From Chitinophaga ginsengisegetis (GTDB taxonomy: Bacteria; Bacteroidota; Bacteroidia; Chitinophagales; Chitinophagaceae), in assembly GCF_900168065.1 (NCBI RefSeq), contig NZ_FUZZ01000001.1, forward strand, positions 1,302,001 through 1,366,000: 64,000 bases of DNA, in the 5' to 3' direction. Shown one piece after another: positions 36,678 through 61,259 of this stretch (position 1 is the stretch's first letter; each line of letters opens with the position of its first letter). Below the pieces are notes generated by a model that saw only the letters and a program-made list of their open reading frames with translations, made no database searches and had not been told where the DNA came from. A program made the translations under genes and the position numbers.

Positions 36678-36742
36678 CCAAATTATTGCCTGCAGCGGTT
36701 GAAATAAATGACCCATCTCATACCGGCAGGTGATTATAATCA
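36678..36742 (-). promoter_or_regulatory. Promoter with FNR-like box for the DUF2267 gene
   Basis: The box TGATTATAATCA (36731-36742) is a perfect palindrome. Read leftwards, a -7-like TAATTTGG (36685-36678) starts exactly 57 nt from the first base of the box. The same box serves the divergent promoter. Confidence 0.65.
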
Positions 36743-36795
36743 GATAAGTACCTAATACCGGTCATTTAACGGCCCCGAATCAAATCCTAATTTTA
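36731..36795 (+). promoter_or_regulatory. Promoter with FNR-like box for the ATP-cone nuclease/PolX operon
   Basis: From the box TGATTATAATCA (36731-36742) to the -7-like TAATTTTA (36788-36795) is exactly 57 nt, first base to first base. The start codon is at 36818. Confidence 0.7.
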
Positions 36796-36817
36796 GTATT
36801 ATCAAACATAGATCCAT

Positions 36818-37687
36818 ATGGGAACAAAACAACCATCAATACTGGTCACCAAAGCCTCCGGAGTTACAGTACCTTTTTCTGCAGAAAAGATCAGGCAATC
36901 CCTGAAAAGGTCCGGCGCCCGGCCAGAAGTGATTGATACGGTTCTGGATGAGTTATATCAGCAGGTATATCCCAATATGCCGACCCGTATGATATACAAG
37001 ACTGCATATGGGTTGCTGAAGAAACTGTCGAAACCTTCAGCCGGAAGATACCAGTTGAAACAGGCCATATTTGAACTTGGGCCATCAGGATTTCCCTTTG
37101 AACAATACGTAGCCGAGCTATTCCGGCAGGAAGGTTTCACGGCAACAACCAACCAGATACTGGAAGGACATTGTGTTAAACATGAGGTAGATATACTGGC
37201 GGTTAAAAACAATATCACCAATATCATGGAATGCAAATATCATCAGCAGCGGGGAACTTTCTGTGATGTAAAGATCCCGCTTTATGTTGAATCGAGATTC
37301 AGGGATATAGAACGGCAATGGAAAAGCACGCATGAAAAAAAACAACAACACTGCGAGGCATGGCTGATTACCAATACCCGCTTCTCAACGGACGCCGTGC
37401 AATACGCACAATGTATGGGATTACATCTCATGTCATGGGACTTTCCCGCAGGGAAAAGCCTGAAGGATATCATTGACAAGGCAGGTTTATATCCGGTTAC
37501 CTGTCTTACTACACTCAGCCGGAGCGAAAAATGCAGGTTACTGGAGAGAGGAATTATACTGTGCAAAACTTTAGCGGAACATGCATCATACCTGGAAGAA
37601 GCAGGGATAGCCGCGCCCAGGAGAGATCTGGCGATAGCTGAAGCCCAGCATCTCTGCCAAGAACTTACAAAACCGGAAATGGCTTAA
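36818..37687 (+). CDS. ATP-cone domain fused to Mrr-like restriction endonuclease domain
   Basis: This 289-aa protein has an ATP-cone domain (about 5-90: TKASGVTVPFSAEKIRQSLK and MPTRMIYKTAYGLLKKLSK), a nucleotide-sensing module known from ribonucleotide reductase and NrdR. A PD-(D/E)xK nuclease domain follows (about 95-210) with FPFEQYVAELFRQEGF, HEVDILAVKNN and IMECKYH, the D-(x)n-E-x-K active site of Mrr-type enzymes. The C-terminal 80 residues are helical. It precedes polX by 37 nt. A nucleotide-gated DNA nuclease for repair or degradation is plausible; no methylase accompanies it, so ordinary restriction-modification is unlikely. Confidence 0.85.
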   Translation: MGTKQPSILVTKASGVTVPFSAEKIRQSLKRSGARPEVIDTVLDELYQQVYPNMPTRMIYKTAYGLLKKLSKPSAGRYQLKQAIFELGPSGFPFEQYVAELFRQEGFTATTNQILEGHCVKHEVDILAVKNNITNIMECKYHQQRGTFCDVKIPLYVESRFRDIERQWKSTHEKKQQHCEAWLITNTRFSTDAVQYAQCMGLHLMSWDFPAGKSLKDIIDKAGLYPVTCLTTLSRSEKCRLLERGIILCKTLAEHASYLEEAGIAAPRRDLAIAEAQHLCQELTKPEMA

Positions 37688-37724
37688 ACAGTCACCGGAA
37701 CAGATAACTATTAAAACTACCAAT

Positions 37725-39227
37725 ATGAAAAACATGGTAAAAAAAATCCCCGAAGCGCTGTCTGAACTGCTGGAGATTAAAGGGATCAGTACCACCAATG
37801 TTATGGCTATACATGAACAACTGGGCATAAATAACATCAATGAATGTAACACCGCTGTCGCATCAGGACAGCTGGCCAACATAAAAGGATTAACTGCAGG
37901 AAAGGTAGAAAATATCAGGCGGGCCCTGAAACTCGCCAAAGATACCCGCGTTCAGTTATGGGACGCGCTGCTGGCTGCTGAAGAAATACTGAGAGCCGTA
38001 AAGCAATTCCCTGAAGTAGAAAAGGCTGCACTCACCGGCAGCCTGAGAAGAAAAAAAGACACCATCGGCGATATCGATATGGTGCTACAGGTAAAAGCGC
38101 CGCTCAGGAAACATTTAATATACAAAATCAGCAGGCTTCCTTCTGTAACAAGGATCATTGCAGCTGGCAGGGAAAGGGTGAGCATCCTTTTACAGAATCA
38201 TATGCAGGTGGATATCCGGCTGGCTGACCAGAAAAATTATGCCGCCGCTCTTTTATACTATACCGGGCCGGTATGGCATAATAAATGGCTTGAAAACCAG
38301 GCCAGGGAAAAAGGCTTCCTGTTTAGTCCCAATGGGTTGTCGGACCTGCAAACAGGAAAACTTATAGCCGTGGACACCGAAGAAGATATTTACGGACAAC
38401 TGCAAATGACATGTCCGGATCCTGAATTAAGAGAAGACGAAACAAATATTACTACAGCGGCAAAACATTCCCTGTTTTCCCTGGTCACATTCGGCCAGAT
38501 AAAAGGGGATATGCAGATCCACAGCAACTGGAGCGATGGCGAAGAGAGCTTTGAACGCATTGCCCATTATGTATTGCATGTTTTTCCACACTACCAGTAC
38601 ATCGTAGTTACAGACCACGCATCTGATGAAAAAACAATAGGTTCACTGCAACCGGAAAATTTCGCCGGGCAATCCGCTGAAATAGACCGGGTTAATCAAT
38701 ACCTGGGCTTTAACTTTATAAAGAAAGGTATAGAAACAGATATCCTGGAAGATGGCCGTTTAAGTCTCACAGATGAGCAGCTTAAGCAGTTCGACTGGGT
38801 AATTGCCTCCATCCATAGCGGCTTCTCTCACGACAACACAGACAGGATCATAAAAGCCTGCGAAAACCCGTATGTGCATTGTATAGGGCATCCCAGCGGC
38901 CGGTTGATTGGCGCCCGGAAACCCTCACCGGTTAACTGGAACCTCATTTTTGAACGGGCCGCTGCCACCGGTACAGCTATGGAAATCAATGCACGCCCAA
39001 ACCGCCTGGATCTCAATGATGAACTGGTTAAAACGGCGATAAAAAATAATGTAAAACTGGTGATTGATACAGATGCACATACCCTGCCTCACTTCGATTT
39101 TATGCAACTGGGAGTATGGGTGGCAAGAAGAGCTGCCTGTGGTAAGCATGATATCCTGAACACCGGAAGCTGGGAAGAAATTGAGAAATTCAAAAAGAAT
39201 AAAGTACAACTCCTGAAAAAAGGCTGA
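37725..39227 (+). CDS. polX: DNA polymerase X family protein with PHP domain
   Basis: This 500-aa protein has a helix-hairpin-helix pair (LLEIKGISTTNVMAIHEQLG; NIKGLTAGKVENIRRAL), a nucleotidyltransferase palm with GSLRRKKDTIGDIDM (catalytic Asp pair) and HMQVDIRLAD, and a C-terminal PHP phosphoesterase domain (about 255-495) with VVTDHASD, GIETDILEDG, IASIHSGF, CIGHPSGR and VIDTDAH. Family members are gap-filling repair polymerases with 3'-5' exonuclease. It is about 70 residues shorter than usual at the N-terminus, so the 8-kDa lyase region is reduced. PHP motif I reads MQIHSNWSDG: Gln replaces the first His of the usual HxH. Confidence 0.88.
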   Translation: MKNMVKKIPEALSELLEIKGISTTNVMAIHEQLGINNINECNTAVASGQLANIKGLTAGKVENIRRALKLAKDTRVQLWDALLAAEEILRAVKQFPEVEKAALTGSLRRKKDTIGDIDMVLQVKAPLRKHLIYKISRLPSVTRIIAAGRERVSILLQNHMQVDIRLADQKNYAAALLYYTGPVWHNKWLENQAREKGFLFSPNGLSDLQTGKLIAVDTEEDIYGQLQMTCPDPELREDETNITTAAKHSLFSLVTFGQIKGDMQIHSNWSDGEESFERIAHYVLHVFPHYQYIVVTDHASDEKTIGSLQPENFAGQSAEIDRVNQYLGFNFIKKGIETDILEDGRLSLTDEQLKQFDWVIASIHSGFSHDNTDRIIKACENPYVHCIGHPSGRLIGARKPSPVNWNLIFERAAATGTAMEINARPNRLDLNDELVKTAIKNNVKLVIDTDAHTLPHFDFMQLGVWVARRAACGKHDILNTGSWEEIEKFKKNKVQLLKKG

Positions 39228-40721
39228 TCAGTACCTGTTATAAACATCTTCATAAAACCTGATCTCGCCCATATTATCCGGCCAGGCTGTATTGTACAAT
39301 ACAAAAACCAGCGCAGGTATTTTCACCGGCAGCACAACTGGTTTCTGATCCGCCTGCGGCCCGCTTTTAATAAGATTATCCATTGTTTGAGCATTGGCCT
39401 CATCCAGTAATAAACGTGCCAGCGAAGCCGCTTCTTCTACCCTGATGCAGCCATGACTGAAAAACCGCTGCTTCAGCATAAACAGGTTTTTGCCAGGCGT
39501 ATCATGCAGGTACACCGTAAACGGACTATAAAAATTCAGCTTTACAATGCCCAGGGAGTTATCGCAACCGGTATTCTGACGGATAACATAAGGAAAATTG
39601 CCGGCACTGAGAGATTGCCAGTTAATATCAGCGGCATTTACTATCCTGCCCTTCTTGTCCAGTATTTCAAACTGGTTGTCTTCAAGATAGCTGCGATCCA
39701 GTTTTATCCGGGGGAGTAATTCCCTGGTGGCAATTCTGTGAGGAACCATCCAATAGGGATATAATACCACCTCAGTAATACGGCTTGCCAATGTAGGCGT
39801 TGGTGTGCTCTTCTTTCCGGTAATAACCCTGGAATATAATACTGGTTTATTATCCTGGAACAATTGCAGCCCGGTGGATGGGATATTGACCACCACGCTT
39901 GTATATGGCCGGTAGCTGTACAACCAACGGATATGATTCAATGCAACTTTCAATTCCCTGATGCGGGAAACAAACGGAACATTCAGTGCACGCAAAAAAC
40001 CGCTGCGCAATACCCCGTCACTCAATACATTGAACTTTCCCTGCGCTTTTATGATGCTCTCCTGCAGCCGGCCGGCCTCTATACTGTCCCCGAATCCTAA
40101 CTGCCCTAACCTTTTAATCAGGGCAATATTGGTGGTATCTGCTTTCAGCGATACCACAGGCGTCTCTGCAAAACCACTATCTGAAAGTGCAGTATAAAAA
40201 TAAGTGAGGGTCTTCTTAACCGCCGCATAAGCGGCGGCCTCCGGTTCAATATGTTGAAGGAAAAAAGAAAAACTGTCGGTCAGCAAACAATCCGCCAGCA
40301 AACGGGCCATCTCAGGCCGTTTGTCCGGCAATCCGGCCAAACCATTATATCTTACTGCCGCGCTATTCACCGGTCCGTAGGCAACATCACAAAAGAAACG
40401 GATAGCTTGTGCCGTAATACGCCGGTCGGCTGCAACGGCATCGGTATCGGGTAAAGTACGCAGAGTATCCTCCGCCATCGAATATATAAACTGCGACTGA
40501 TAATCATTCTCTTCTAATCCCAGGAAAGGAGCCTGCTTAAAAAAAACCATCAGCTGCTGTAAAACGGGTTTCCTGCCGGGCGACAACCACACCACCTGTT
40601 GTTGCATTCTGCCGTAAAATACAGTCACAGCAGCAGAATCATCCGTCAAATGCAGCGCGCTGGCAGTTGTGAAAAGAGAAAACAACAGCAGCGTTATGAG
40701 TGAAATAATATACTTCATCAC
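39228..40721 (-). CDS. L,D-transpeptidase, YcbB-like (YkuD catalytic domain)
   Basis: This 497-aa exported protein has a signal peptide (MMKYIISLITLLLFSLFTTA), a helical scaffold (about 40-250) and a YkuD domain (about 255-470): VVNIPSTGLQLFQDNKPVLY, VITGKKSTPTP and the catalytic SHGCIRV (Cys425). YcbB-type enzymes make 3-3 cross-links in peptidoglycan and help cells survive envelope stress. Its start overlaps the flavodoxin stop by 4 nt, placing it last in the hsp20 operon. Its end abuts the convergent polX stop with no gap. Confidence 0.9.
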   Translation of the reverse strand: MMKYIISLITLLLFSLFTTASALHLTDDSAAVTVFYGRMQQQVVWLSPGRKPVLQQLMVFFKQAPFLGLEENDYQSQFIYSMAEDTLRTLPDTDAVAADRRITAQAIRFFCDVAYGPVNSAAVRYNGLAGLPDKRPEMARLLADCLLTDSFSFFLQHIEPEAAAYAAVKKTLTYFYTALSDSGFAETPVVSLKADTTNIALIKRLGQLGFGDSIEAGRLQESIIKAQGKFNVLSDGVLRSGFLRALNVPFVSRIRELKVALNHIRWLYSYRPYTSVVVNIPSTGLQLFQDNKPVLYSRVITGKKSTPTPTLASRITEVVLYPYWMVPHRIATRELLPRIKLDRSYLEDNQFEILDKKGRIVNAADINWQSLSAGNFPYVIRQNTGCDNSLGIVKLNFYSPFTVYLHDTPGKNLFMLKQRFFSHGCIRVEEAASLARLLLDEANAQTMDNLIKSGPQADQKPVVLPVKIPALVFVLYNTAWPDNMGEIRFYEDVYNRY

Positions 40722-41233
40722 GCGGCCACCTCACTCAGCTTCCTGACAGCATTGATAATGGCTTCCAGGTGTTCTTTTTTAACGTCATTATAATCTTCCA
40801 TGGAGATGTCATCCGTTTTATCGCTGGCCAGTTTGGAACCAATGGTCAGTAGCAGCTTGTCTATCCATGAAAGCTTATTAAATTCCAGTTTTCCAGGCAG
40901 GAAGAAAGGCACACACCTGCTCCTCAGGGATTCCGATATATTTGTGGTCAGGTAGCCCTCCAGCTTTTCTTTATCTGAAGAAGGCGTTCCTGACACCAGG
41001 AAAAGAAACAGGCGTTTACTGATAATTATATCCCCATGCTCTTTCAGCCATTTACGCAGCTGTAGTTTACCAATGTAAATACTGGAACCGAGGATAATGC
41101 AATCTGCATCTGCCAGTTGCTGCGCGGTTTCCGAACCAGCCGGAATAACCGGCCATCCCAACATACTTCCCAGCCACAGCGCATACTGACGGGTAGCGCC
41201 ATATTTGCCTTTGTAAATAATAAGACCTTTCAT
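40718..41233 (-). CDS. Flavodoxin-domain protein (HemG-like)
   Basis: This 171-aa protein starts MKGLIIYKGKYGATRQYALW, a phosphate-binding loop of the flavodoxin type in which the usual T/S-x-T-G-x-T pattern becomes YKGKYGATRQYA. It continues ADCIILGSSIYIGKLQLRKW and LFLFLVSGTPSSD. The family includes menaquinone-dependent protoporphyrinogen oxidase; here, in a stress operon, it may be a general FMN electron carrier. It lies 12 nt after a universal stress protein gene and overlaps the L,D-transpeptidase start. Confidence 0.82.
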   Translation of the reverse strand: MKGLIIYKGKYGATRQYALWLGSMLGWPVIPAGSETAQQLADADCIILGSSIYIGKLQLRKWLKEHGDIIISKRLFLFLVSGTPSSDKEKLEGYLTTNISESLRSRCVPFFLPGKLEFNKLSWIDKLLLTIGSKLASDKTDDISMEDYNDVKKEHLEAIINAVRKLSEVAA

Positions 41234-41245
41234 GATCGGCTCATT

Positions 41246-42082
41246 TTAAGGATGAGTAATGAATACAGGTATATTCACTGTACGCAGAATGTTATCAGCA
41301 TCGCTGCGATGAAAAAAACGGGAAACACCACTCCTGCCGTACGCGCCGTAAGTAACAATACAGTCTTTCCGGTGAATCAGTAATGCCAGGAACTCCGTTG
41401 CCGGCTCACCATTCAGGATAATGTACTCCACTGTGTCATAATGCATATCCAGGTATTCCCGGAGTTGGGGTTCCCAGGGCATTACCTTGTTATTATTCTC
41501 CGCTACATACACCACTTTCACCGGCATATCAGCATATCCCGGGAAAAGCTCGGTGAACTGCCTGATGGCATACATGGAAGAAAAAGTGCCATTATAGGAA
41601 AATATAATCTCTTTAACCGGCGACATCACTTCCGGCAAAACCATCACCGGGCACTCTGCTTCTGCCAGCAAATCTTTTACAAACCGGGGAGGGTCTGTAT
41701 CGTATAATGTAGCAAATGACGTGCTGTTACCAATCAGTAAAAGATCAGCAAACCTGCTTTCTTCCACTACTTTCTCTGCCGGTACTCCTGCAGTTTCCCG
41801 GACCTTAATATCCACATTACTGCCATCACAGATTTCATGTAGTTGTTTCAGGTTTTTATCCCGCTGGAATTCCAACGCGGCCCTGCTCTCAGCAGTAATC
41901 TGTTCATAATTGTAGGCATAACCTCCCGGGTACATGGTGCCCATTGGTGTCAGCTCACTTACAATATCATCCAGGCATACCACCGTTAAAGGACTTTCTG
42001 CCTCTCTGGCTATATACTTAAACGCTTCTACCTGTTCGTCTGAAAAGTGAAGCGCATCTATTGCAGCAATAATCTTTTTCAT
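41246..42082 (-). CDS. Universal stress protein, tandem USP domains
   Basis: A protein of about 278 aa with two USP halves. The first starts MKKIIAAIDALHFSDEQVEA and contains ESRFADLLLIGNSTSF; the second starts VKEIIFSYNGTFSSMYAIRQ and ends IVTYGAYGRSGVSRFFHRSD, in the region of the ATP-binding loop. USP proteins bind ATP or act in redox and energy stress. It is the third gene of the hsp20 operon. I chose Met at 42082, 21 nt after the preceding USP stop; seven residues upstream are less likely. Confidence 0.9.
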   Translation of the reverse strand: MKKIIAAIDALHFSDEQVEAFKYIAREAESPLTVVCLDDIVSELTPMGTMYPGGYAYNYEQITAESRAALEFQRDKNLKQLHEICDGSNVDIKVRETAGVPAEKVVEESRFADLLLIGNSTSFATLYDTDPPRFVKDLLAEAECPVMVLPEVMSPVKEIIFSYNGTFSSMYAIRQFTELFPGYADMPVKVVYVAENNNKVMPWEPQLREYLDMHYDTVEYIILNGEPATEFLALLIHRKDCIVTYGAYGRSGVSRFFHRSDADNILRTVNIPVFITHP

Positions 42083-42103
42083 AGTGATTATAGTTTTAAA
42101 CAA

Positions 42104-42937
42104 TTAATAATGAGTGATAAAAACAGGCTGCGTCACCAGTTTTACTACCAGCGTAGCCGGGTTAGGAACAAATGCGGTGGACAAAACACTCCGTCCGTAA
42201 GCTCCCATTACAATAAATACTTTTTCTTTGCTGAACATAAATTCCAATAAACGGGTGCTAACGCTTTCATCTTCCACCACCTGGATCTCCGTGTTATTGT
42301 AGTGCGTATCCAGCCATTCCCGCAGCCTTGCTTCGTCGCCTTTAATGGGTTTACCGGTTTCTGTTACACTCAGCACGGTTGCCTTACATGTTCCAAGCTG
42401 AGGGAACAGGTTCGTGAACTGTTTCATCGCAAATACTGATGAGCAGCTACCGTTGTAAGTGAAGATAATTTCGTCAACTCCGTCAAAATCTTCCGGCGCT
42501 ATCACCACCGGGCATTCCGATTTCTCCAGTACCTCCTTTACAAATGTTGTTGGAATGCTTTCCGGTCTCCATGAAAATGACGTAGCAGCATCCAATACTA
42601 TCAGGTCGGCATAACGGCTTTCCTTTACCACTTCCGTAACCGGCATACCTGCATCCAGGTGTACCAGGCAGTTCACGCCATTCGACTCACAGATATTTTT
42701 GAACCGGTCTATATTTTTATCTCTGAAGAGATTTTTCTGATCTTCCAATTCAATTCCCGGAACTGGTTTTCCGACCGCAATTTCCCGGATATCCTCCGCC
42801 GATCTCAATTCCAATACCTGGTTTTCAAGAAACACACCTGTAAGTTTTGAATGCGTGAGATTACAGAGATAACAGGCAAATTCAAGGCTAGGTCCGTTAA
42901 AGCTTACCGCATCTGTTACAAATAATATTTTTTTCAT
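42104..42937 (-). CDS. Universal stress protein, tandem USP domains
   Basis: This 277-aa protein has two USP halves: MKKILFVTDAVSFNGPSLEF with ESRYADLIVLDAATSF, then VDEIIFTYNGSCSSVFAMKQ with VFIVMGAYGRSVLSTAF. It resembles the USP divergent from hsp20 (43646) most closely among the four paralogues. It is the second gene of the hsp20 operon, separated from hsp20 by 64 nt containing a hairpin that may reduce read-through. Confidence 0.92.
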   Translation of the reverse strand: MKKILFVTDAVSFNGPSLEFACYLCNLTHSKLTGVFLENQVLELRSAEDIREIAVGKPVPGIELEDQKNLFRDKNIDRFKNICESNGVNCLVHLDAGMPVTEVVKESRYADLIVLDAATSFSWRPESIPTTFVKEVLEKSECPVVIAPEDFDGVDEIIFTYNGSCSSVFAMKQFTNLFPQLGTCKATVLSVTETGKPIKGDEARLREWLDTHYNNTEIQVVEDESVSTRLLEFMFSKEKVFIVMGAYGRSVLSTAFVPNPATLVVKLVTQPVFITHY

Positions 42938-42955
42938 AACACTATTTTTTCAGGA

Positions 42956-42985
42956 TTTAAAACCCGGTCAGATGGGCTGGCCGGG
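42956..42985 (-). terminator. Hairpin with U-run between hsp20 and the USP gene (partial terminator)
   Basis: CCCGG (42963-42967) pairs with CCGGG (42981-42985), extended by CAG/CTG across one mismatch. On the minus strand it is followed by TTTTAAAT. It would lower expression of the downstream genes relative to hsp20. Confidence 0.45.
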
Positions 42986-43001
42986 CCTTGCAGATCAGCA
43001 T

Positions 43002-43454
43002 CTATTTAACAGCTATCTGGACGCTTTTACCATTCTTTTTTGCATCCTCATTTTTGGGAAGCTTCAATTTTAACACCCCTTCTTCATAATGTGCTTCAAT
43101 TTTCTCTTTACTGATACTTTCAGGGAGATTAAAGCTGCGGGAAAAACTGCTGTAATTATATTCCCGTCTGCTGTATTTCTCATTCTTTTCTTCCTTTTCA
43201 TTTTCTGTTTCCGCGCTTACAGTAAGCACATTGCCCTCCAGGTTAATCCTGAAATCTTCCTTTTTCATACCGGGAGCAGCAACGGACAGATTGTAACTCT
43301 CTTTGTCTTCACTCACGTTCACTGCCGGAACAGTTAGCTCCGCTAAAGACCGGCCACCATTAAAATCAGTAGTCCATTCCCGCCACGGTTTAAAGAAATC
43401 ATCAAATAATGATGGGAAAAGTGTGCTGCGTTTGGTTAGTGCTTGAGATGACAT
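43002..43454 (-). CDS. Small heat-shock protein, Hsp20/alpha-crystallin family
   Basis: This 150-aa protein has an N-terminal arm (TLFPSLFDDFFKPWREWTTD) and an alpha-crystallin domain (about 40-140): VPAVNVSEDKESYNLSVAAP, GMKKEDFRINLEGNVLTVSA, FSRSFNLPESISKEKIEAHY and the closing GVLKLKLPK. It is an ATP-independent holdase. It heads a five-gene minus-strand operon with two USPs, a flavodoxin and an L,D-transpeptidase. It has an unusually strong Shine-Dalgarno sequence and its own FNR-like-box promoter. Confidence 0.95.
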   Translation of the reverse strand: MSSQALTKRSTLFPSLFDDFFKPWREWTTDFNGGRSLAELTVPAVNVSEDKESYNLSVAAPGMKKEDFRINLEGNVLTVSAETENEKEEKNEKYSRREYNYSSFSRSFNLPESISKEKIEAHYEEGVLKLKLPKNEDAKKNGKSVQIAVK

Positions 43455-43489: not shown

Positions 43490-43554
43490 CTAAACTATCG
43501 CGTACCGGGGCATGAAAAAATGATCAATCTCAATAGAGATCCTGATTGTAATCA
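43490..43554 (-). promoter_or_regulatory. Promoter with FNR-like box for the hsp20 operon
   Basis: The box TGATTGTAATCA (43543-43554), or TGATTACAATCA on this strand, lies exactly 57 nt before a -7-like TAGTTTAG (43497-43490). The hsp20 ATG is at 43454. Confidence 0.65.
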
Positions 43555-43568: not shown

Positions 43569-43633
43569 TGTCCATAATCATACTACAGGCTGACCGCAAT
43601 CATAGTTGCCGGGAGTCTTCCGGGTTAACTTTA
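43569..43633 (+). promoter_or_regulatory. Promoter with degenerate FNR-like box for the divergent USP gene
   Basis: TGTCCATAATCA (43569-43580) matches six of eight fixed positions, with an intact proximal ATCA half. The -7-like TAACTTTA (43626-43633) is exactly 57 nt on. The start codon is at 43646. Confidence 0.55.
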
Positions 43634-44676: not shown

Positions 44677-44703
44677 GGCAGGCGCTGTCAGGCCCTGCCC
44701 TTA
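44675..44703. terminator. Weak hairpin between the small membrane gene and htrA
   Basis: AAGGCAGG (44675-44682) can pair with CCTGCCCTT (44693-44701) with one bulge. It lies between convergent genes that end at 44676 and 44701. There is no T-run. Confidence 0.35.
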
Positions 44704-45873: not shown

Positions 45874-45938
45874 TAAAAGTAATGTACCCATTCAGCCCTG
45901 GTAATGACATTCGTCACCCTTCCTGATGATGCTGATCA
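45874..45938 (-). promoter_or_regulatory. Promoter with FNR-like box for htrA
   Basis: The box TGATGCTGATCA (45927-45938) lies exactly 57 nt before a -7-like TACTTTTA (45881-45874), both read leftwards. Confidence 0.68.
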
Positions 45939-45953: not shown

Positions 45954-46018
45954 TGATAATAATCATATACCCGGCTAATCATAGTCATGAATAAACATAC
46001 GCCACCTTAATACATTTG
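45954..46018 (+). promoter_or_regulatory. Promoter with FNR-like box for the glycogen operon
   Basis: The box TGATAATAATCA (45954-45965, preceded by T as in the FNR consensus) lies exactly 57 nt before TACATTTG (46011-46018), a perfect TAnnTTTG -7 element. The start codon is at 46044. Confidence 0.75.
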
Positions 46019-48002: not shown

Positions 48003-48013
48003 ATATATTTTAT

Positions 48014-49300: not shown

Positions 49301-49317
49301 TTTAATCATTATTCTCT

Positions 49318-54520: not shown

Positions 54521-54539
54521 TCATTATAAAACAGACTTT

Positions 54540-54998
54540 ATGTTAGGCAAATTAAACTTAGATCAGATTGACCAGGTACTGGCCAAAAATGTAACAGGCC
54601 GCATCGGATGTACCGATGGGCAAAAAGTATATATAGTGCCTGTTAGTTATGCTTTCAATAATGCCTACCTGGTAATACACTCCAGGGAAGGGATGAAAAT
54701 TGATATGATGCGGCAGCACCCGCATGTTTGTTTTCAGGTGGATGAAATTACCGATATGGCAAACTGGCGCAGTGTTGTTTTATGGGGAGATTATGAAGAG
54801 ATAACAGATCCGAAGGAAAGATTTTACGCCATGAAGTTCCTTGTAAGCCGGCTGGCACATCTGCAGGTAAGCGAAACCGCAGGAGTATCCGACATGCATG
54901 AGGAAATAGCAACGGAAAGAATGCCTGAAAATATTATCCGGCCTATTGTTTACCGGATAAGGATTACTGAAAAAACCGGCAGGTTTGAAAGCATCTGA
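54540..54998 (+). CDS. Pyridoxamine 5'-phosphate oxidase-like FMN-binding protein
   Basis: This 152-aa protein has a split-barrel flavin-binding fold: IDQVLAKNVTGRIGCTDGQK, YIVPVSYAFNNAYLVIHSRE, MMRQHPHVCFQVDEITD and WRSVVLWGDYEEI. This is the NimA/PNPOx-related family common in stress regulons, with unknown substrates (F420-, FMN- or heme-binding in relatives). It follows the synthase-phosphorylase gene by 19 nt and ends the glycogen operon. Confidence 0.85.
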   Translation: MLGKLNLDQIDQVLAKNVTGRIGCTDGQKVYIVPVSYAFNNAYLVIHSREGMKIDMMRQHPHVCFQVDEITDMANWRSVVLWGDYEEITDPKERFYAMKFLVSRLAHLQVSETAGVSDMHEEIATERMPENIIRPIVYRIRITEKTGRFESI

Positions 54999-55011: not shown

Positions 55012-55019
55012 CAACTATT

Positions 55020-57434
55020 TTAAATTAAAACGGGTAACGCATTTTTGTTATTGATGCCATATTCATCTTCCGCTTTCCGGATATTGGCAATTCCTTTCAG
55101 TAAAGCATCGGGGTTAAAAGAAACACTGGTGATGCCCTGTGTCACGAGAAAAGCCGCAAAATCAGGGAGGTCACTAGGCGCCTGACCACAAAGTCCGATA
55201 CGCACGCCCGCTTTTTTTGCAGCAGTTATCATCATACTGATCATCATCCGCGCAGCAGCATCCTCTTCACTGAAAAGATCGGATACCAGCGCCGAATCCC
55301 TGTCTATTCCCAGGGTAAGTTGTGTGAGGTCATTTGAACCGATGGAGAATCCGTCAAATATATCAGCAAAGGCAGCGGCCTGCAATACATTGGAAGGTAT
55401 TTCCGCCATTACATAAACTTCCAGACCGTTTTCTCCCTGCCGTAAACCAAACGACTCCATTACATTCAGCACCTTCCTGCCCTCTTCCACTGTACGACAA
55501 AAAGGTATCATCACCTTCACATTTGTTAATCCCATCTCCTCTCTTACCATCTTTATAGCGGCACATTCCAGCCCGAATCCTTCTTTATACAAAGGATGAT
55601 AATACCGGGAAGCGCCCCGGAACCCAAGCATAGGGTTTTCTTCCAACGGCTCAAACTCTTTTCCTCCCAGCAGTTGCGCATACTCATTGGTTTTAAAATC
55701 ACTCATCCGCACAATTACATCTTTGGGGTAAAAGGCAGCAGCAATAGTGGCAATACCTTGCGAAAGCTTATCGACAAAGAACTTCTTCTTATCAGGATAA
55801 AGTAAAGTTTTTTCGGTTATCGCCGACCACGCGGCTTTATCCTTTAGTTCATCATATTTCACCAGGGCCATCGGATGAATACCTATTGCATGCGTAATAA
55901 TAAATTCCATTCTCAGCAAGCCTACTCCATCGTTGGGATAAAACGACAACTGGAAGGCCTTATCGGGGTCGCTGATAATCAAACATGCCTCTGTACTTTC
56001 CGGCAACGCTATATTTCCAGGATCCATTTCTATTACTTCAAATGGCAATGCTCCTTCATATACGTACCCTATTTTTCCCTCACTGCAGGATACCGTAATT
56101 GCAGCGCCGTCCCTGATCTTCTGCGTGGCATCCGTTGCACCAACAATAGCCGGTACTCCCAGCTCCCTGGCCACTATGGAGGCATGACTGGTTCTTCCGC
56201 CGGTATTGGTTACAATAGCAGCCACTTTTTTCAGTACAGGATCCCAGTCCGGACTGGTATTGTCAGTCACCACAATATCACCAGGCTGGAGTTCCCCGAT
56301 ATCGGCAGGCGATTGCAATACACGGGCTATGCCGGTAGCCATTTTTTCACCGATAGCTTCTCCTGTTACAAGACAATTTCCCTTCTCCCGCAACTTATAG
56401 ATTTTCAGCTGCTGCGGCTTCTTCGCTGTATGGATCGTTTCCGGGCGGGCCTGCAATATGAATAATTCCCCGGTAACAGCATCCCTGGCCCACTCTATGT
56501 CCATCGGGCAATTATAATGCTCTTCTATCTGCATCGCCCAGCGGGCCAGCTGCAATACTTCCGGATCAGATAACACGTAACGCTGCCGGTCTTCCAGCAG
56601 TGTCTCCGTATTCACCGTACTTTCTTCAGCATTGGGATCATCGGAAAAACAAAGCGTTTTAGCTTTATCCCCCAACTTCCTTTGTATGATAGCCTGTTTC
56701 CCCTCTAATAACGTTGGCTTGAAAACATAAAATTCATCCGGCGCCACGGTTCCCTGCACAATATTTTCTCCCAATCCCCAAATACCGGATATCAGGACTA
56801 CATCCCGGAAACCCGATTCCGGCTCCAGCGTAAATCCAACCCCCGAACAGGATCCATTGGTGCGCACCATCAGTTGTATCCCTACAGAAAGGGCTACTTT
56901 GCTGTGCTCGAAGCCGTTATCTTCCCGGTACTTAATGGCCCTGTCGGTATACAGAGAGGCGAAGCAGCGGCGTACTGCTTTTAATAGCGCCTGCTCTCCC
57001 CTGATATTCAGGTACGACTCATGCTGCCCCGCAAAACTGGCCTCTGGCATGTCTTCCGCTGTTGCGCTGCTCCGGACAGCCACTGCTACCGGAGCCCCTT
57101 TGCCAAGCACGTTGTAGGCTCTTAAAATCTCTCTTTCCACTTCCGCTGGTATCGTTCCTTCCAGTATGAGTTTACGGCAGGCAGCCCCTGTTTCTGCCAG
57201 ATTTGAAAATGTTTCCCGGTCCAGTTGCTGCATCAGCTGTAACAACGATTGCCGTATACCATTAATATCAAGGTACATCCAGAAGGCAGCAGCTGTTGTG
57301 GCAAATCCTTCCGGCACTTTAATTCCCTTTCCGGTAAGGGTAACGGTCATTTCACCGAGCGAAGCGTTCTTACCGCCTACAATCGCTGTATCAGTGATCC
57401 TGATAGCTGAGAAGTTCCTGATAATATCGTTCAT
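55020..57434 (-). CDS. ppsA: Phosphoenolpyruvate synthase
   Basis: This 804-aa enzyme converts pyruvate and ATP to PEP, AMP and phosphate. It has the ATP-grasp domain (AIVGGKNASLGEMTV; VAVRSSATAEDMPEASFAGQ; MDIEWARD), the phosphohistidine domain (GGRTSHASIVARELGVPAIV, His417) and the PEP-binding barrel (GLLRMEFIITHAIGIHPMAL; GSNDLTQLTLGIDRDS; GLCGQAPSDLPDFAAFL). The length matches the family (about 790-810). It lies 24 nt after a small conserved gene that has an FNR-like-box promoter. It links the glycogen operon to pyruvate, perhaps for gluconeogenesis when oxygen or carbon is limiting. Confidence 0.96.
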   Translation of the reverse strand: MNDIIRNFSAIRITDTAIVGGKNASLGEMTVTLTGKGIKVPEGFATTAAAFWMYLDINGIRQSLLQLMQQLDRETFSNLAETGAACRKLILEGTIPAEVEREILRAYNVLGKGAPVAVAVRSSATAEDMPEASFAGQHESYLNIRGEQALLKAVRRCFASLYTDRAIKYREDNGFEHSKVALSVGIQLMVRTNGSCSGVGFTLEPESGFRDVVLISGIWGLGENIVQGTVAPDEFYVFKPTLLEGKQAIIQRKLGDKAKTLCFSDDPNAEESTVNTETLLEDRQRYVLSDPEVLQLARWAMQIEEHYNCPMDIEWARDAVTGELFILQARPETIHTAKKPQQLKIYKLREKGNCLVTGEAIGEKMATGIARVLQSPADIGELQPGDIVVTDNTSPDWDPVLKKVAAIVTNTGGRTSHASIVARELGVPAIVGATDATQKIRDGAAITVSCSEGKIGYVYEGALPFEVIEMDPGNIALPESTEACLIISDPDKAFQLSFYPNDGVGLLRMEFIITHAIGIHPMALVKYDELKDKAAWSAITEKTLLYPDKKKFFVDKLSQGIATIAAAFYPKDVIVRMSDFKTNEYAQLLGGKEFEPLEENPMLGFRGASRYYHPLYKEGFGLECAAIKMVREEMGLTNVKVMIPFCRTVEEGRKVLNVMESFGLRQGENGLEVYVMAEIPSNVLQAAAFADIFDGFSIGSNDLTQLTLGIDRDSALVSDLFSEEDAAARMMISMMITAAKKAGVRIGLCGQAPSDLPDFAAFLVTQGITSVSFNPDALLKGIANIRKAEDEYGINNKNALPVLI

Positions 57435-57458
57435 AAGTTTGTTTTTAACCAGTAAATA

Positions 57459-57857
57459 CTATTCTTCTTCCATTTCATCCGGCAGCCGGAATCGCTGCCG
57501 TTCTACCGGCCGGCCGGCGATATTCAATTCTTCCAGTGTCCAGTTATCAGTGGTGGTGGTTTCCAGCCACAAGTCGCCACACCTGCGCAGGATCTGCGCA
57601 CTCAAACCAAACTCGTGGCTGAAGTCGTGTTCCACTGCTGCCGCCCGCCGGTAATAGCTAACGTCCAGCCATCCGGAATTATGTATCATCCTGATCTTAT
57701 CGATAGGCGTTTCAGGCGGCACCGCTTCCTCCTTAGGTGAGCATTCCCCCGTTCTGTGCGGGTTGCGGTAAAATGCCAGCCTGAGATAGGGGTAAAATTC
57801 CCTGAACCTCTTTTGTATATCCCCTACCACAGCTTCTTCACTAATATAGATATCCAT
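57459..57857 (-). CDS. Conserved hypothetical protein upstream of ppsA
   Basis: A 132-aa protein (MDIYISEEAVVGDIQKRFRE, then FYPYLRLAFYRNPHR) with no signal peptide or membrane segment. A C-terminal part with LSAQILRRCGDLWLETTTTD and WTLEELNIAGRPVERQRF looks well structured. I do not recognise a named family, though proteins of this shape recur next to ppsA-like genes of Bacteroidota in my recollection. It is the first gene of the ppsA transcript and starts 29 nt below a predicted -7 element. Confidence 0.7.
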   Translation of the reverse strand: MDIYISEEAVVGDIQKRFREFYPYLRLAFYRNPHRTGECSPKEEAVPPETPIDKIRMIHNSGWLDVSYYRRAAAVEHDFSHEFGLSAQILRRCGDLWLETTTTDNWTLEELNIAGRPVERQRFRLPDEMEEE

Positions 57858-57878: not shown

Positions 57879-57943
57879 CAATATTAGCCCACGGCTGGTT
57901 CTCCCAAAATGAGATCAGTCAGCCGGCCGTATGATAGCGGTCA
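57879..57943 (-). promoter_or_regulatory. Promoter with near-match FNR-like box for the ppsA operon
   Basis: Read leftwards, TGACCGCTATCA (57943-57932; seven of eight fixed positions) lies exactly 57 nt before TAATATTG (57886-57879). The start codon follows at 57857. Confidence 0.6.
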
Positions 57944-57992
57944 TATCCCCTTGTTTCGCCGCCCTGATCTTGATTCAAACAGATAAAATCCT

Positions 57993-58000
57993 TATCTTTC
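57993..58000 (+). promoter_or_regulatory. Candidate -7 element (TATCTTTC) of the kinase/regulator operon
   Basis: A one-mismatch TAnnTTTG element, 35 nt before the kinase start. No box lies at the 57-nt position, so the regulators may be expressed independently of the regulon. Confidence 0.4.
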
Positions 58001-58027
58001 CGCCGGTAACAACTACTATGTAAGCCT

Positions 58028-59623
58028 ATGAGCTTTTCTATCAGCGATCTGGACATCAATTTTCAACTGGGAATGTTTGCCGCTATCATGGAACGTATGC
58101 CGGGCCTTGTAGCTATAAGGGAACTGGAAAACGGTAAGCTGATTTATATCAATGACGCCGGCATGAAAATGCTGGGAACAGATGATTATGCTGAACTTGA
58201 ATTACTGATTGACCAGAATCAGCTGGGTAGAGGCAGTTTCAGTGCACAGGCAGCACAAGATAATCTTCTGACCAAAGAGCGCCAATGGCAAAACATCCGG
58301 GGAGAAACCTTTCAGGGGCTTTATGAAGAAATATTACTACGTAATAACAATAAAGAATATTGCTTTTTCCGCATCACGGATTCCCTTACAGACCGCAAAT
58401 TCAAGCAGCAGCTTAACAGGGAGCTGGAGCGCTTTGGCGCCCTGTTCGATTATGCCAGCATAGGTATCCTGGTAACTAATCAACAGGGGGAAATTATACT
58501 GATCAACGACTTCGCCCTTGACCAGTTTGGATACAGGCGGGAAGAACTGTTAGGTCATAAAGTGGAAGTGCTTATTCCCAGGCGCGTTCATGACAGGCAT
58601 GAAAAACACAGGAACCGCTACAACGCCCACCCCCAAAGCAGGCCTATGGGTATTGGCATGGACCTGTTTGCCGTTCGGAAAGACGGGTCAGAATTCCCGG
58701 TGGAAATCAGTCTTAGTCATTATGCCAACGAAGAAGGACACTTTGTAATCGCCTATCTCAATAATATTACAGAAAGAAAAAAGGCGGAAGAAAAGATAGA
58801 AAGACTGAACGATGAGCTGGAAGGCATGGTGGAAGAACGCACCCAGCAGCTCACAAAAGCGCTGGAGCAACTCAAAATATCAAAAGAAGAACTGACGGTA
58901 GCATTGAGTAAAGAAAAAGAACTGGGAGACCTGAAGTCACGTTTTGTATCTATGGCTTCCCATGAGTTCAGAACTCCCCTCAGCACCATCCTTTCTTCTG
59001 CATTCCTGGTAAAACATTATGCAGAAGAAAAAGACCAGCCAACCCGGAACAAACATATACAACGGATTGTTAACTCGGTGACTTTGCTGACCGATACCCT
59101 GAACGATTTCCTCTCCGTAGGTAAAATTGAGGAAGGGAAAGTACAGGTTCGTCTTGCTGATTTCGACATAGAAGACTATTTCAATAACATCATACAGGAG
59201 ATGCAGGAATTGGCCAAAGAAAAGCAGGTAATTGAATACCGCCACAGTGGGGAGCCAACAGTATTGCTGGACCCTTCGTTGCTTAAGCATATTACCATGA
59301 ACCTCGTGGGAAATGCTATCAAATTTTCAAAGTCCGATGGTGTGATAGAGATCTTTACGGTGAAAAGTAACCATGCTTTTTCGCTCACCGTAAAGGACAG
59401 CGGCATCGGTATGTCGCACGAAGATCAGCAACATCTCTTCGAAAGATTTTACCGGGGCACCAATGTAAGTAATATACAGGGAACAGGTCTTGGGTTACAT
59501 ATTGTAAATAAATACACCGAATTGATGAACGGCAGCATTTCCTGCGAAAGTGAACTCAATGCGGGTACTACCTTTACAATTAATTTTCAGTTAGATGCTA
59601 AAAACATCCCCTATCAGTCATGA
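58028..59623 (+). CDS. PAS-domain sensor histidine kinase
   Basis: This 531-aa cytoplasmic kinase has no membrane segment. It has a first PAS-like domain (about 12-125: MERMPGLVAIRELENGKLIY), a second PAS domain (about 135-255: DYASIGILVTNQQGEIILIN; SRPMGIGMDLFAVRKDGSEF), a coiled coil (about 258-300: EKIERLNDELEGMVEERTQQ), HisKA with MASHEFRTPLS (phospho-acceptor His312) and a HATPase_c domain (MNLVGNAIKFSKSDGVIEIF; GTGLGLHIVNKY). Its stop overlaps the next start by 4 nt, so the response regulator is surely its partner. The signal is unknown; the FixL-type heme residues are absent. Confidence 0.95.
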   Translation: MSFSISDLDINFQLGMFAAIMERMPGLVAIRELENGKLIYINDAGMKMLGTDDYAELELLIDQNQLGRGSFSAQAAQDNLLTKERQWQNIRGETFQGLYEEILLRNNNKEYCFFRITDSLTDRKFKQQLNRELERFGALFDYASIGILVTNQQGEIILINDFALDQFGYRREELLGHKVEVLIPRRVHDRHEKHRNRYNAHPQSRPMGIGMDLFAVRKDGSEFPVEISLSHYANEEGHFVIAYLNNITERKKAEEKIERLNDELEGMVEERTQQLTKALEQLKISKEELTVALSKEKELGDLKSRFVSMASHEFRTPLSTILSSAFLVKHYAEEKDQPTRNKHIQRIVNSVTLLTDTLNDFLSVGKIEEGKVQVRLADFDIEDYFNNIIQEMQELAKEKQVIEYRHSGEPTVLLDPSLLKHITMNLVGNAIKFSKSDGVIEIFTVKSNHAFSLTVKDSGIGMSHEDQQHLFERFYRGTNVSNIQGTGLGLHIVNKYTELMNGSISCESELNAGTTFTINFQLDAKNIPYQS

Positions 59624-60678
59624 AAACTATTTTATTAATTGAAGATAATGAGGAATTACGTGAAAATACAGTGGATATTCTTGCTATAGCGGGGTATAAT
59701 GTAATCACGGCAGAAAATGGTAAGATCGGAGTGGAAATGATCCTCAGCCACAAGCCCGACCTGGTGATATGTGATATTATGATGCCCGTGCTGGATGGCT
59801 TTGGCGTGTTGCACCTGATGCAACAGCACGAAGAAATGAAAGATATCCCGTTTATCTTCCTGACCGCCAAAACTGAACGAGGCGATTTTCGCAAAGGAAT
59901 GGGAATGGGAGCAGATGATTATATCACCAAACCATTCAGCGGAACTGAATTATGGGATGCCATAGAAAGACGGTTGAAAAAAGCAGCTATCAGAAAACAA
60001 CATTTTGCGCCTGATCTGCAGGGACTGAACAAGCTGATGTACGAGGCCACCGGTAAAGAGTCGCTGAAAGCGCTGGCAGAAGGAAGGAATATTGATAAAT
60101 TTAAAAAGAAGCAGGCTATTTACACGGAAGGCAATCACCCTACCCGCTTGTTCTATCTGCAACGTGGTAAAATAAAAACGATAAAAACCAATGATCTTGG
60201 TAAAGAGCTGGTCATAGATCTTTTCACCGCCGGCGACTTTATTGGCTACACCGCTTTACTGGAAGGCGGCCTTTACAAGGAAACAGCCATTGCAATGGAG
60301 GAAAGCGAAGTAGCCATGATTCCGCTCAACGACTTTGAAGAACTCATTCATAATAATCATGAAATAGCTGTTCAGCTTATCCGCATGCTGGCCAAAAATG
60401 TAGCCGCAAAAGAGCAGCAGCTGCTGGGGCTTGCCTACAATTCGCTTCGAAAAAAAGTGGCCGATGCGCTGATCAGTCTTCACAATAAATACAATCCTCA
60501 AAAAGAGCAACCTTTCATCATCAACGTGAGCCGCGAAAACCTGGCAACTATTGCAGGTACCGCTACAGAGTCGCTTATCCGCACACTGAGTGATTTCCGC
60601 GATGAAAAACTGATTGACATCAGGGATGGCGCCGTAGTGCTCCTGGATGAAAAGAAATTATCCAATATGCTTTGCTGA
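59620..60678 (+). CDS. Response regulator fused to a CRP/FNR-type DNA-binding module
   Basis: This 352-aa protein has a receiver domain (1-120: acidic pocket near Glu8/Asp9, phospho-acceptor Asp52 in VICDIMMPVLDG, Lys104 in YITKPFSG), a cyclic-nucleotide-binding-like beta-roll (about 150-265: NIDKFKKKQAIYTEGNHPTR; GKELVIDLFTAGDFIGYTAL) and a Crp-type winged helix-turn-helix (about 270-352: LRKKVADALISLHNKY; SRENLATIAGTATESLIRTL). FNR-type cluster cysteines are absent, so control is probably by phosphorylation. The recognition helix TATESLIRTLSDF keeps the Glu and Arg that read G-A in CRP/FNR half-sites. It is the likely activator of the TGAT-N4-ATCA promoters around it. Confidence 0.94.
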   Translation: MKTILLIEDNEELRENTVDILAIAGYNVITAENGKIGVEMILSHKPDLVICDIMMPVLDGFGVLHLMQQHEEMKDIPFIFLTAKTERGDFRKGMGMGADDYITKPFSGTELWDAIERRLKKAAIRKQHFAPDLQGLNKLMYEATGKESLKALAEGRNIDKFKKKQAIYTEGNHPTRLFYLQRGKIKTIKTNDLGKELVIDLFTAGDFIGYTALLEGGLYKETAIAMEESEVAMIPLNDFEELIHNNHEIAVQLIRMLAKNVAAKEQQLLGLAYNSLRKKVADALISLHNKYNPQKEQPFIINVSRENLATIAGTATESLIRTLSDFRDEKLIDIRDGAVVLLDEKKLSNMLC

Positions 60679-61086
60679 AATACCCGGAAACGCATCCGAC
60701 AAATAGTCCTGAAAGTCAGCCCTTAAAAGCTGAAAGCTTTCCCGGATGGAAAAGATGTTTTCCCTCAGGTTCTTATACCGGTTCAGGAACTCCTGCTCCA
60801 GGCTACCTGTCTGCTGTTTCAGCAAAATGGTATACTCCCGGATCTCATGCCGGAGTAAACCTATCCGGCTATCCATTTTCAGAAACCTGCTTTGGAAAAA
60901 CTCCAGGTGTGCCAATTGCACCTTGGGGAGATCTGTTGTCAGAATATCTGTCAATTTTGTTTTAAAGAAGATATTCTCATTTTCCAGTTGCTTTAATATT
61001 TCCTTCCAGGCTTCATTTTGATGCAGCATTTCACACAACTCATTTTTCATCGTCTGCTTTTTTATATATTCATGGTTATAGGACAT
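60658..61086 (-). CDS. Hypothetical coiled-coil protein
   Basis: This 142-aa helical protein (MSYNHEYIKKQTMKNELCEM) is rich in charged and leucine residues (LRHEIREYTILLKQQTGSLE; FLNRYKNLRENIFSIRESFQ), consistent with a coiled coil. I recognise no family. Its 3' end overlaps the response regulator 3' end by 21 nt in convergent orientation. Start 61086 fits the predicted promoter (-7 at 61123); Met at 61050 is the alternative. Its promoter places it in the same regulon as the USP gene opposite. Confidence 0.65.
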   Translation of the reverse strand: MSYNHEYIKKQTMKNELCEMLHQNEAWKEILKQLENENIFFKTKLTDILTTDLPKVQLAHLEFFQSRFLKMDSRIGLLRHEIREYTILLKQQTGSLEQEFLNRYKNLRENIFSIRESFQLLRADFQDYLSDAFPGISAKHIG

Positions 61087-61115
61087 CTGTTATTTTCCTG
61101 CCAACTTCCTATACC

Positions 61116-61181
61116 CGAATATACTCTCCTTTCTATCCTGTTTCAAATGACAGTTGTTAGTCCTTTCTCTGATCCTCATCA
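61116..61181 (-). promoter_or_regulatory. Promoter with FNR-like box for the coiled-coil gene
   Basis: Read leftwards, the box TGATGAGGATCA (61181-61170) is followed by TATATTCG (61123-61116), 58 nt on. This is one base longer than the other promoters and has a weaker -7. Confidence 0.5.
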
Positions 61182-61194
61182 TATTTTTCCCACC

Positions 61195-61259
61195 TGATTA
61201 AGATCAATACATGGGTTGCCGGAAATCATTTTTCCCCGAAACACAAGCGTGTACTTTTA
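61195..61259 (+). promoter_or_regulatory. Promoter with FNR-like box for the USP/M50 operon
   Basis: The box TGATTAAGATCA (61195-61206) lies exactly 57 nt before TACTTTTA (61252-61259). Transcription would start below the Met at 61260, which supports Met at 61275 as the start. Confidence 0.68.

What the first reader, a model, noticed from the sequence alone, without database searches (positions are those of the whole stretch)
36678..61259. An FNR-like operator, TGAT-N4-ATCA, at a fixed 57-nt distance from the -7 element defines a regulon of nine promoters
Seen directly: exact boxes at 36731, 43543, 45927, 45954, 61170 and 61195, a one-mismatch box at 57932 and a two-mismatch box at 43569. Each faces a TAnnTTTR-like element whose first base is 57 nt (58 in one case) from the first base of the box: 36788+, 36685-, 43497-, 43626+, 45881-, 46011+, 57886-, 61123-, 61252+. 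All lie in intergenic regions and the genes downstream begin 23-43 nt after each -7. Eight fixed bases are expected about once per 65 kb by chance, so six exact intergenic copies with one phase are not random. The geometry fits class I activation by a CRP/FNR-family protein. The regulon would contain hsp20, four USPs, htrA, the glycogen operon, ppsA, M50-CBS, ATP-cone nuclease, polX and DUF2267.
Basis: partly seen in the sequence, partly recalled or inferred. Interest (0 to 1): 0.93.

Follow-up and report, generated by a model that had tools for sequence, protein, structure and literature searches.

The report
Paired-box low-oxygen promoters in Bacteroidota
Nine promoters in this stretch of a bacterial genome share one rigid pair of DNA boxes, an arrangement that recurs in most of the related genomes sampled and is predicted to let a likely oxygen-sensing kinase and its partner regulator switch on genes for surviving low oxygen together.

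Summary
Each of the nine promoters has two boxes: TGAY-N4-RTCA, then starting exactly 22 bp later a looser second box ending RTCAT (CTCAT once), then 22 bp (23 once) to a TAnnTTTR-like element. The composite occurs 22 times in the genome (reversed control 1), 452 times in 148 genomes of the order (control 6) and 508 times in 197 of the class (control 9). Fifteen of the genome's 22 sites lie in a 39-kb island that also encodes a PAS kinase and a receiver-cNMP-HTH_Crp fusion. Sites follow this fusion or a CxxC FNR-like protein: in the order 13/13 genomes with both, 81/91 with the fusion only, 18/21 with the FNR-like only and 5/23 with neither have a site. The kinase's PAS is closest to FixL/DosP haem domains; the haem-ligand His position is His in 85 of 92 fusion-linked kinases (5 not alignable, 2 other). 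Recurrent targets: cbb3 oxidase, its ATPase, USPs, small unnamed proteins. Most likely a FixL-like kinase drives a FixJ/FixK-like fusion, two abutting dimers activating. Binding, transcript starts and oxygen sensing are untested.

The parts
36731..36742 (.). box 1 shared by two divergent promoters (ATP-cone nuclease/PolX-like to the right, DUF2267 to the left)
36753..36765 (+). box 2 (TAATACCGGTCAT) of the rightward promoter
36788..36795 (+). -7 element TAATTTTA
36708..36720 (-). box 2 (TGAGATGGGTCAT) of the leftward promoter
36678..36685 (-). -7 element TAATTTGG
43520..43554 (-). box 1 (43543-43554) and box 2 (43520-43532) of the hsp20-USP promoter
43490..43497 (-). -7 element TAGTTTAG of hsp20
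43569..43603 (+). box 1 (43569-43580) and box 2 (43591-43603) of the rightward USP promoter
43626..43633 (+). -7 element TAACTTTA
45904..45938 (-). box 1 (45927-45938) and box 2 (45904-45916) of the htrA promoter
45874..45881 (-). -7 element TACTTTTA of htrA
45954..45988 (+). box 1 (45954-45965) and box 2 (45976-45988) of the glycogen operon promoter
46011..46018 (+). -7 element TACATTTG of the glycogen operon
57909..57943 (-). box 1 (57932-57943) and box 2 (57909-57921, CTCAT) of the 132-aa protein/ppsA promoter
57879..57886 (-). -7 element TAATATTG
61147..61181 (-). box 1 (61170-61181) and box 2 (61147-61159) of the 142-aa protein promoter; -7 at 58 nt instead of 57
61116..61123 (-). -7 element TATATTCG
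61195..61229 (+). box 1 (61195-61206) and box 2 (61217-61229) of the USP/M50-CBS promoter
61252..61259 (+). -7 element TACTTTTA
58028..59623 (+). PAS-HisKA-HATPase_c kinase; PAS closest in the PDB to FixL/DosP haem PAS; H191 aligned with the haem-ligand His of FixL
59620..60678 (+). response regulator: receiver + cNMP_binding + HTH_Crp_2 fusion, predicted activator of the array
36207..36662 (-). DUF2267 protein, predicted target
36818..39227 (+). ATP-cone/Mrr nuclease and PolX-like protein, predicted targets
40718..43454 (-). hsp20, two USPs (41246-42103 with Pfam Usp; 42104-42937 USP-like by eye, no Pfam match) and a flavodoxin-domain protein; likely one operon
43646..44482 (+). USP-like protein (Pfam Usp 22.2 bits, just under the 24 cut-off), predicted target
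44701..45855 (-). HtrA-type protease, predicted target
46044..54998 (+). glycogen operon: debranching-type enzyme, glycosyltransferase, glycogen synthase-phosphorylase fusion by search; 49318-50364 and 54540-54998 not searched; predicted targets
55020..57857 (-). 132-aa protein without a family match, and phosphoenolpyruvate synthase; predicted targets
60658..61086 (-). 142-aa protein without a family match, predicted target
61275..63282 (+). USP and M50 peptidase with CBS domain, predicted targets

Best explanation
Nine promoters of the window carry a rigid array of two TGAY-N4-RTCA-type boxes 22 bp apart and a TAnnTTTR-like -7 element 22 bp (23 in one) further on, and this array is predicted to be bound by two abutting dimers of the receiver-CRP fusion protein encoded at 59620-60678, which its neighbouring kinase, a likely haem-based oxygen sensor, would phosphorylate when oxygen falls. 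Shown by sequence: the array, its fixed spacing, its recurrence across the class, its mostly intergenic place upstream of genes, its co-occurrence with the fusion or with a CxxC FNR-like protein, and its clustering beside the fusion gene. Inferred: that these proteins bind it, that they activate, and that the signal is low oxygen. If the T of the TA lies at -12 (usual for this promoter type, recalled), box 2 is centred at -41.5 and takes the place of the -33 element, and box 1 is centred at -63.5 on the same face of the helix. The system would work like FixL-FixJ-FixK of rhizobia, with the receiver of FixJ joined directly to a FixK-like activator, and would set cbb3 oxidase, stress proteins, glycogen and PEP metabolism together.
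For: Composite pattern: 22 own-genome sites vs 1 reversed control; 452 vs 6 in 148 genomes; 508 vs 9 in 197 genomes. In 80 named fusion loci: 72 sites with up to 1 mismatch vs 0 reversed; box spacer 18 gives 72, the 16 other spacers from 10 to 26 give 0-8; box2-to--7 gap 22 gives 72, the 16 other gaps from 14 to 30 give 0-6. Tandem tested from the other side: of 34 exact box 2 + -7 elements, 30 have box 1 within 3 mismatches 22 bp upstream, against 28 of 306 control offsets. Co-occurrence (genomes with a site; both / fusion only / FNR-like only / neither): order 13/13, 81/91, 18/21, 5/23; class 35/36, 46/62, 28/45, 11/54; one genome per family 14/14, 13/16, 7/13, 3/21. Linkage: 15 of 22 own sites within 39 kb around the fusion gene. 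Recurrent targets among 164 named sites. PAS best PDB hits FixL and DosP; His kept in 85 of 92 linked kinases, 5 not alignable there, 2 with another residue; two kinases (L177, L213) carry a FixL-type stretch with the distal Arg.
Against: No binding, transcript-start or expression data. With the fusion only, 10 of 91 order genomes and 16 of 62 class genomes have no site at 1 mismatch, and 5 of 23 and 11 of 54 with neither protein have one. The FNR-like protein alone is a weaker predictor class-wide (28/45; one per family 7/13, p = 0.02). The window's kinase has Met where FixL has its distal Arg. With the whole kinase as query, a blue-light-photoreceptor/FixL chimera (4gcz) also matched with its best stretch over the PAS (E 4.2e-11); it was not among the 15 hits of the PAS piece alone at E 0.01, where TodS was weakest (0.0093). 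This PAS type may occur without haem. 85 of 164 named sites have a next gene I could not class, and 5 none. The co-occurrence counts are not corrected for phylogeny beyond one genome per family.
Confidence: 0.72

Rival explanations
1. The CxxC FNR-like protein (beside the cbb3 locus in this genome), not the receiver-CRP fusion, is the main reader of the array, and the fusion only modulates it or reads other sites.
For: Its gene sits by two arrays at the cbb3 locus in this genome; 18 of 21 order genomes with it alone have sites; its recognition helix, read by eye, has the same E and R as the fusion (TATESAIR vs TATESLIR).
Against: 81 of 91 order genomes with the fusion alone have sites, one of them (G101) 23; sites cluster at the fusion gene, 72 in 80 loci and 15 of 22 in the own genome.
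Confidence: 0.15
2. The signal is not oxygen but redox, NO, or general energy or starvation stress; the PAS domain binds another ligand or none.
For: Window targets are mostly stress and reserve genes (USP, Hsp20, HtrA, glycogen, ppsA); the distal Arg of FixL is Met here; a blue-light PAS chimera also matched the whole kinase.
Against: cbb3 oxidase and its ATPase are the largest classed target group in named loci, 23 of 164; the PAS piece matches FixL and DosP best, and two linked kinases have a FixL-type PAS.
Confidence: 0.3
3. Only box 2 acts (ordinary class II activation); box 1 is an auxiliary or repressing site.
For: Box 2's half nearest the -7 element is the most constant part (TCA 88 of 88, in part by construction of the search pattern) and overlaps the -33 position.
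Against: Box 1 is the better palindrome; 30 of 34 exact box 2 + -7 elements, found without using box 1, have it within 3 mismatches.
Confidence: 0.15
4. Chance or repeat artefact: a motif in AT-rich intergenic DNA.
For: The eight fixed bases of box 1 occur by chance about 1.5 times per window.
Against: Reversed controls 1, 6, 9 against 22, 452, 508 sites; spacing specificity.
Confidence: 0.01

Closest known systems
FixL-FixJ-FixK2 cascade of Bradyrhizobium (PMC9104804, passages seen)
   Same: two-component oxygen system feeding a CRP/FNR-type activator; cbb3 oxidase operon (fixNOQP) as target
   Different: receiver and CRP-type activator are one protein here; box lacks the outer T/A of TTGA/C-N6-T/GCAA; two abutting boxes; Bacteroidota-type -7 element
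Alphaproteobacterial FNR/FixK core regulon (PMC2908626, passages seen)
   Same: regulators sharing one site; core targets cbb3 oxidase, heavy-metal P-type ATPase, USP; regulator gene beside its targets
   Different: single TTGAY-N4-RTCAA-type boxes in the table rows seen; other phylum; a receiver-CRP fusion takes FixK's place here
DosR dormancy regulon of mycobacteria (recalled, no call)
   Same: USPs, Hsp20, PfkB, cation P-type ATPase, nitroreductase, CBS protein; haem sensor kinases
   Different: DosR is a NarL/LuxR-type regulator with another operator; here a CRP-type domain
Tandem (class III) CRP/FNR promoters of E. coli (recalled)
   Same: one site near -41.5 plus an upstream site on the same face
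   Different: upstream sites there usually lie further off; here the second dimer would directly abut the first (22 bp) and the spacing hardly varies

Membership tests
CRP/FNR regulator family (fusion protein) | cNMP-binding fold plus HTH_Crp domain | tested here: met
   PF00027 1e-19 and PF13545 1e-12, above curated cut-offs
Two-component response regulator (fusion protein) | receiver domain with acceptor Asp and partner kinase | tested here: met
   PF00072 2e-26; Asp at DLVICDIMMP, position 52; kinase gene overlaps by 4 nt; phosphorylation untested
FNR (oxygen-sensing Fe-S regulator), for the L040 protein | curated Fnr model score and a full set of cluster cysteines | tested here: not met
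   99.6 bits vs cut-off 228; CxxC is usual among its relatives, but a four-Cys pattern (one loose regular expression) matched 1 of 50 rows, the own genome's protein itself
FNR/FixK operator | TTGAY-N4-RTCAA, outer T and A included | tested here: not met
   outer T in 6 of 88, outer A in 7 of 88 sites
FixL haem-PAS kinase | PAS homology to FixL and proximal haem His | tested here: met
   FixL 1d06 E 5e-12, His aligned (which His binds haem is recalled); His in 85 of 92 linked kinases
FixL haem-PAS kinase | distal Arg of the haem pocket | tested here: not met
   Met in the window's kinase; Arg in L177 and L213; role recalled
FixL haem-PAS kinase | haem and oxygen binding | not testable with these tools
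   needs protein
FixJ-FixK cascade | separate FixJ and FixK proteins | tested here: not met
   one fused protein
Class II/III activator-dependent promoter | site centred at -41.5 from the transcript start | not testable with these tools
   start not mapped; position inferred from the -7 element
DosR regulon | DosR operator and NarL-type regulator | not tested
   comparison of gene content recalled only

The most novel reading that the evidence does not exclude
Bacteroidota run a class-wide low-oxygen and dormancy regulon through a promoter type of its own: two abutting CRP-type dimers at -41.5 and -63.5 that replace the -33 element, read interchangeably by a receiver-CRP fusion driven by a FixL-like haem kinase and by a CxxC FNR-like protein, with (A/C)TGAY-N4-RTCA(G/T) in place of the FNR box.
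Probability: 0.55. Interest if true: 0.85.

Novelty: new variant of a known kind. Interest (0 to 1): 0.72.

Why it matters
The listings of nine searches of open-access papers aimed at it (one search showed 12 of 41 papers) named no work on an FNR/FixK-type low-oxygen regulon in Bacteroidota; subscription papers and preprints were not searched. If right, one rigid 65-bp pattern would predict much of the low-oxygen regulon of a large share of the class from sequence alone, link many unnamed USP, DUF2267 and small proteins to low oxygen, and give a test case for activation by two directly abutting dimers at a promoter without a normal -33 element.

Tried and rejected
Rejected: single class I box (second box in all nine; tandem test); chance; strict FNR box. 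Box 1 plus -7 alone with up to one mismatch gave 31 own-genome hits vs 3 controls, several without box 2, so I did not use it for counts. Own-genome site C7:1098541 (2 mismatches, PWM score 9.3) is taken as chance; C9:505510 (score 20.6, upstream of an alcohol dehydrogenase) as probable.

Choices behind the counts. In 'fusion' means any match at E at most 1e-40, weak and partial ones included, except G180 (C-terminal part only), dropped. For one search, ten order genomes whose FNR-like hit had another recognition helix (G106, G032, G134, G043, G003, G019, G085, G120, G145, G123) were not counted as FNR-like; four of them (G032, G043, G003, G019) therefore fall in 'neither', with 1 site between them, the other six in 'fusion only'. 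In one search a cruder rule was used for the FNR-like protein (E at most 1e-50, helix not checked). The place lists were cut by the tool; counts per genome were whole. The random points and control offsets come from the same loci as the sites.

No structure was predicted: the PAS match by sequence seemed enough, and haem cannot be modelled here. One search was made while checking this report: of the proteins I had called USPs by eye, 42104-42937 has no Pfam match and 43646-44482 is just under the cut-off; the other four scanned there pass.

Papers: passages of three papers seen (PMC4999443 is not relied on); for the others only search listings with the start of the abstract. One search was aimed at FixK2, not at Bacteroidota.
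Full report
One search finds nine exact TGATN4ATCA in the window (shuffled mean 1.49; 0 of 100 shuffles reach nine). Box 1 (12 bp) is followed after 18 bp by RTCAT, the half nearest the -7 element of a second, looser palindrome (about TRAY-N4-RTCAT) whose centre is 22 bp from the first, and 22 bp after that comes TAnnTTTR. All nine window promoters have it, eight with the 57-nt phase and one with 58; one (57886-) has CTCAT for RTCAT.

This composite is far from chance. Own genome, up to 2 mismatches: 22 sites vs 1 for the reversed pattern. Order, up to 1 mismatch: 452 sites in 117 of 148 genomes vs 6. Class: 508 sites in 120 of 197 genomes vs 9; six of these 197 are also in the order sample, and without them 114 of 191 genomes have 481 sites. 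In 80 named loci around relatives of the window's fusion protein (the closest, 81% identical, is a Chitinophaga, so the host is likely one too), 72 sites (up to 1 mismatch) vs 0. Box spacers of 17 and 19 instead of 18 leave 0 and 8 against 72; gaps of 21 and 23 instead of 22 leave 6 and 1. Starting from box 2 plus -7 alone, 30 of 34 exact elements have box 1 within 3 mismatches, against 28 of 306 at control offsets; starting from box 1 plus -7, 53 of 58 have box 2 within 3 mismatches against 10 of 348. So the tandem is close to obligatory in these loci. Sites avoid coding sequence: 3 of 22 (own) and 6 of 72 (named loci) have their centre in an ORF of at least 200 aa, against 70% and 77% of random points; an ATG-started ORF of at least 100 aa begins 5-65 nt after the TA in 16 of 22 and 45 of 72, against 13% and 15%.

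In 88 distinct sites the palindrome is (A/C)TGAY-N-A-N2-RTCA(G/T): the outer T and A of the FNR/FixK box are avoided (6 and 7 of 88). FNR reads that outer T through a Ser of its recognition helix (recalled); the fusion and the FNR-like protein have Ile there by my alignment by eye, which would fit.

Who reads it? The window encodes a PAS histidine kinase and, overlapping it by 4 nt, a receiver-cNMP_binding-HTH_Crp_2 protein. Fifteen of the 22 own-genome sites lie in C9:1338678-1377621 (39 kb of 7.93 Mb), with this pair inside. A second such pair with a site lies on C7. A CRP-type protein with an N-terminal CxxC lies by the cbb3 oxidase locus on C6, where two more sites stand. Across the order, sites are present in 13 of 13 genomes with both proteins, 81 of 91 with the fusion only, 18 of 21 with the FNR-like protein only and 5 of 23 (one site each) with neither. 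Across the class, with a cruder rule for the FNR-like protein, 35 of 36, 46 of 62, 28 of 45 and 11 of 54; with one genome per family 14 of 14, 13 of 16, 7 of 13 and 3 of 21. Either protein seems sufficient, and the fusion is the stronger predictor class-wide. Density agrees: 0.9 sites per fusion locus of at most 21.1 kb against 3.05 per whole genome in the order; the genome sets differ.

What is the signal? With the PAS piece alone, the closest solved structures are FixL and DosP haem domains, one multi-sensor kinase (10jx) whose ligand I do not know, and far behind TodS (15 hits); with the whole kinase a blue-light-photoreceptor/FixL chimera (4gcz) also matched over the PAS at a similar E-value. 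The haem-ligand His of FixL aligns with H191; among 92 kinases beside a fusion gene (of 110 loci examined, the own one included) it is His in 85, Y or E in 2, and cannot be aligned in 5. Two of these kinases (L177, L213) carry a FixL-like stretch with the distal Arg. The window's kinase has Met there. Haem is therefore likely but not shown.

Targets. In the window: DUF2267, ATP-cone/Mrr nuclease with a PolX-like protein, hsp20 with two USPs, a third USP, HtrA, the glycogen operon, a 132-aa protein with ppsA, a 142-aa protein, and a fourth USP with the M50-CBS peptidase; of the four USPs two pass Pfam's cut-off, one is just under it and one has no match. Beyond the window on the island: PfkB, a cation P-type ATPase, a zinc-ribbon protein with a USP, two small proteins resembling the window's by eye, and two more USPs. 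Elsewhere: a 185-aa protein before the CcoI-like ATPase, a cupin before CcoNO, a protein beside the second pair, an ORF before a nitroreductase, a 130-aa protein, and (probable) an alcohol dehydrogenase. Among 164 sites (up to 2 mismatches) in the named loci, the next gene resembles CcoNO in 12, the CcoI-like ATPase in 11, a USP in 13, the small proteins in 21, the kinase in 6, the fusion in 5, hsp20 in 2, PfkB in 2, the zinc-ribbon protein in 1 and ADH in 1; 85 are unclassed and 5 have no ORF.

Mechanism, inferred. With the TA at -12, box 2 is centred at -41.5 and covers the -33 element; box 1 is at -63.5, on the same face and directly abutting. Two dimers side by side would recruit polymerase to a promoter that lacks its own -33 element. 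The closest known system in logic is FixLJ-FixK (PMC9104804), and alphaproteobacterial FNR and FixK also share one site and a cbb3/P-ATPase/USP core (PMC2908626). The differences are the fused receiver, the box sequence, the abutting pair and the phylum. Hence: new variant of a known kind.

Noticed in passing
window 36708-36765: Three boxes in a row at 22-23 bp pitch: the middle box (36731) serves as box 1 for both divergent promoters.
   Followed up: partly
L041 83-2339 (own genome C7): A second PAS kinase and receiver-CRP fusion pair, its fusion 58% identical to the window's, with a composite site upstream of a neighbouring gene.
   Followed up: partly
window 57459-57857 and 60658-61086; L039 10816-11214 and 12140-12523: Two groups of small proteins that recur downstream of composite sites, 13 and 8 of 164 named sites; the three scanned have no Pfam match and the two window ones no NCBIfam match.
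   Followed up: partly
window 50327-54520: A 1397-aa ORF with a glycogen synthase domain and a carbohydrate phosphorylase domain.
   Followed up: partly
L177 and L213: Fusion-linked kinases whose PAS has the FixL-type stretch with the distal Arg, unlike the window's.
   Followed up: no
L192 12438- and L210 12425-; L167, L184, L210: Composite sites before genes that look like acetyl-CoA hydrolase/transferase (L192, L210), and before short ORFs that look like CcoS (L167, L184, L210); by eye only.
   Followed up: no
L039 16804-18918: A protein that reads like a beta-lactamase-fold/rhodanese enzyme and a further CRP-type regulator next to the island's end, both named by eye; the PWM scan lists no composite site there.
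   Followed up: no
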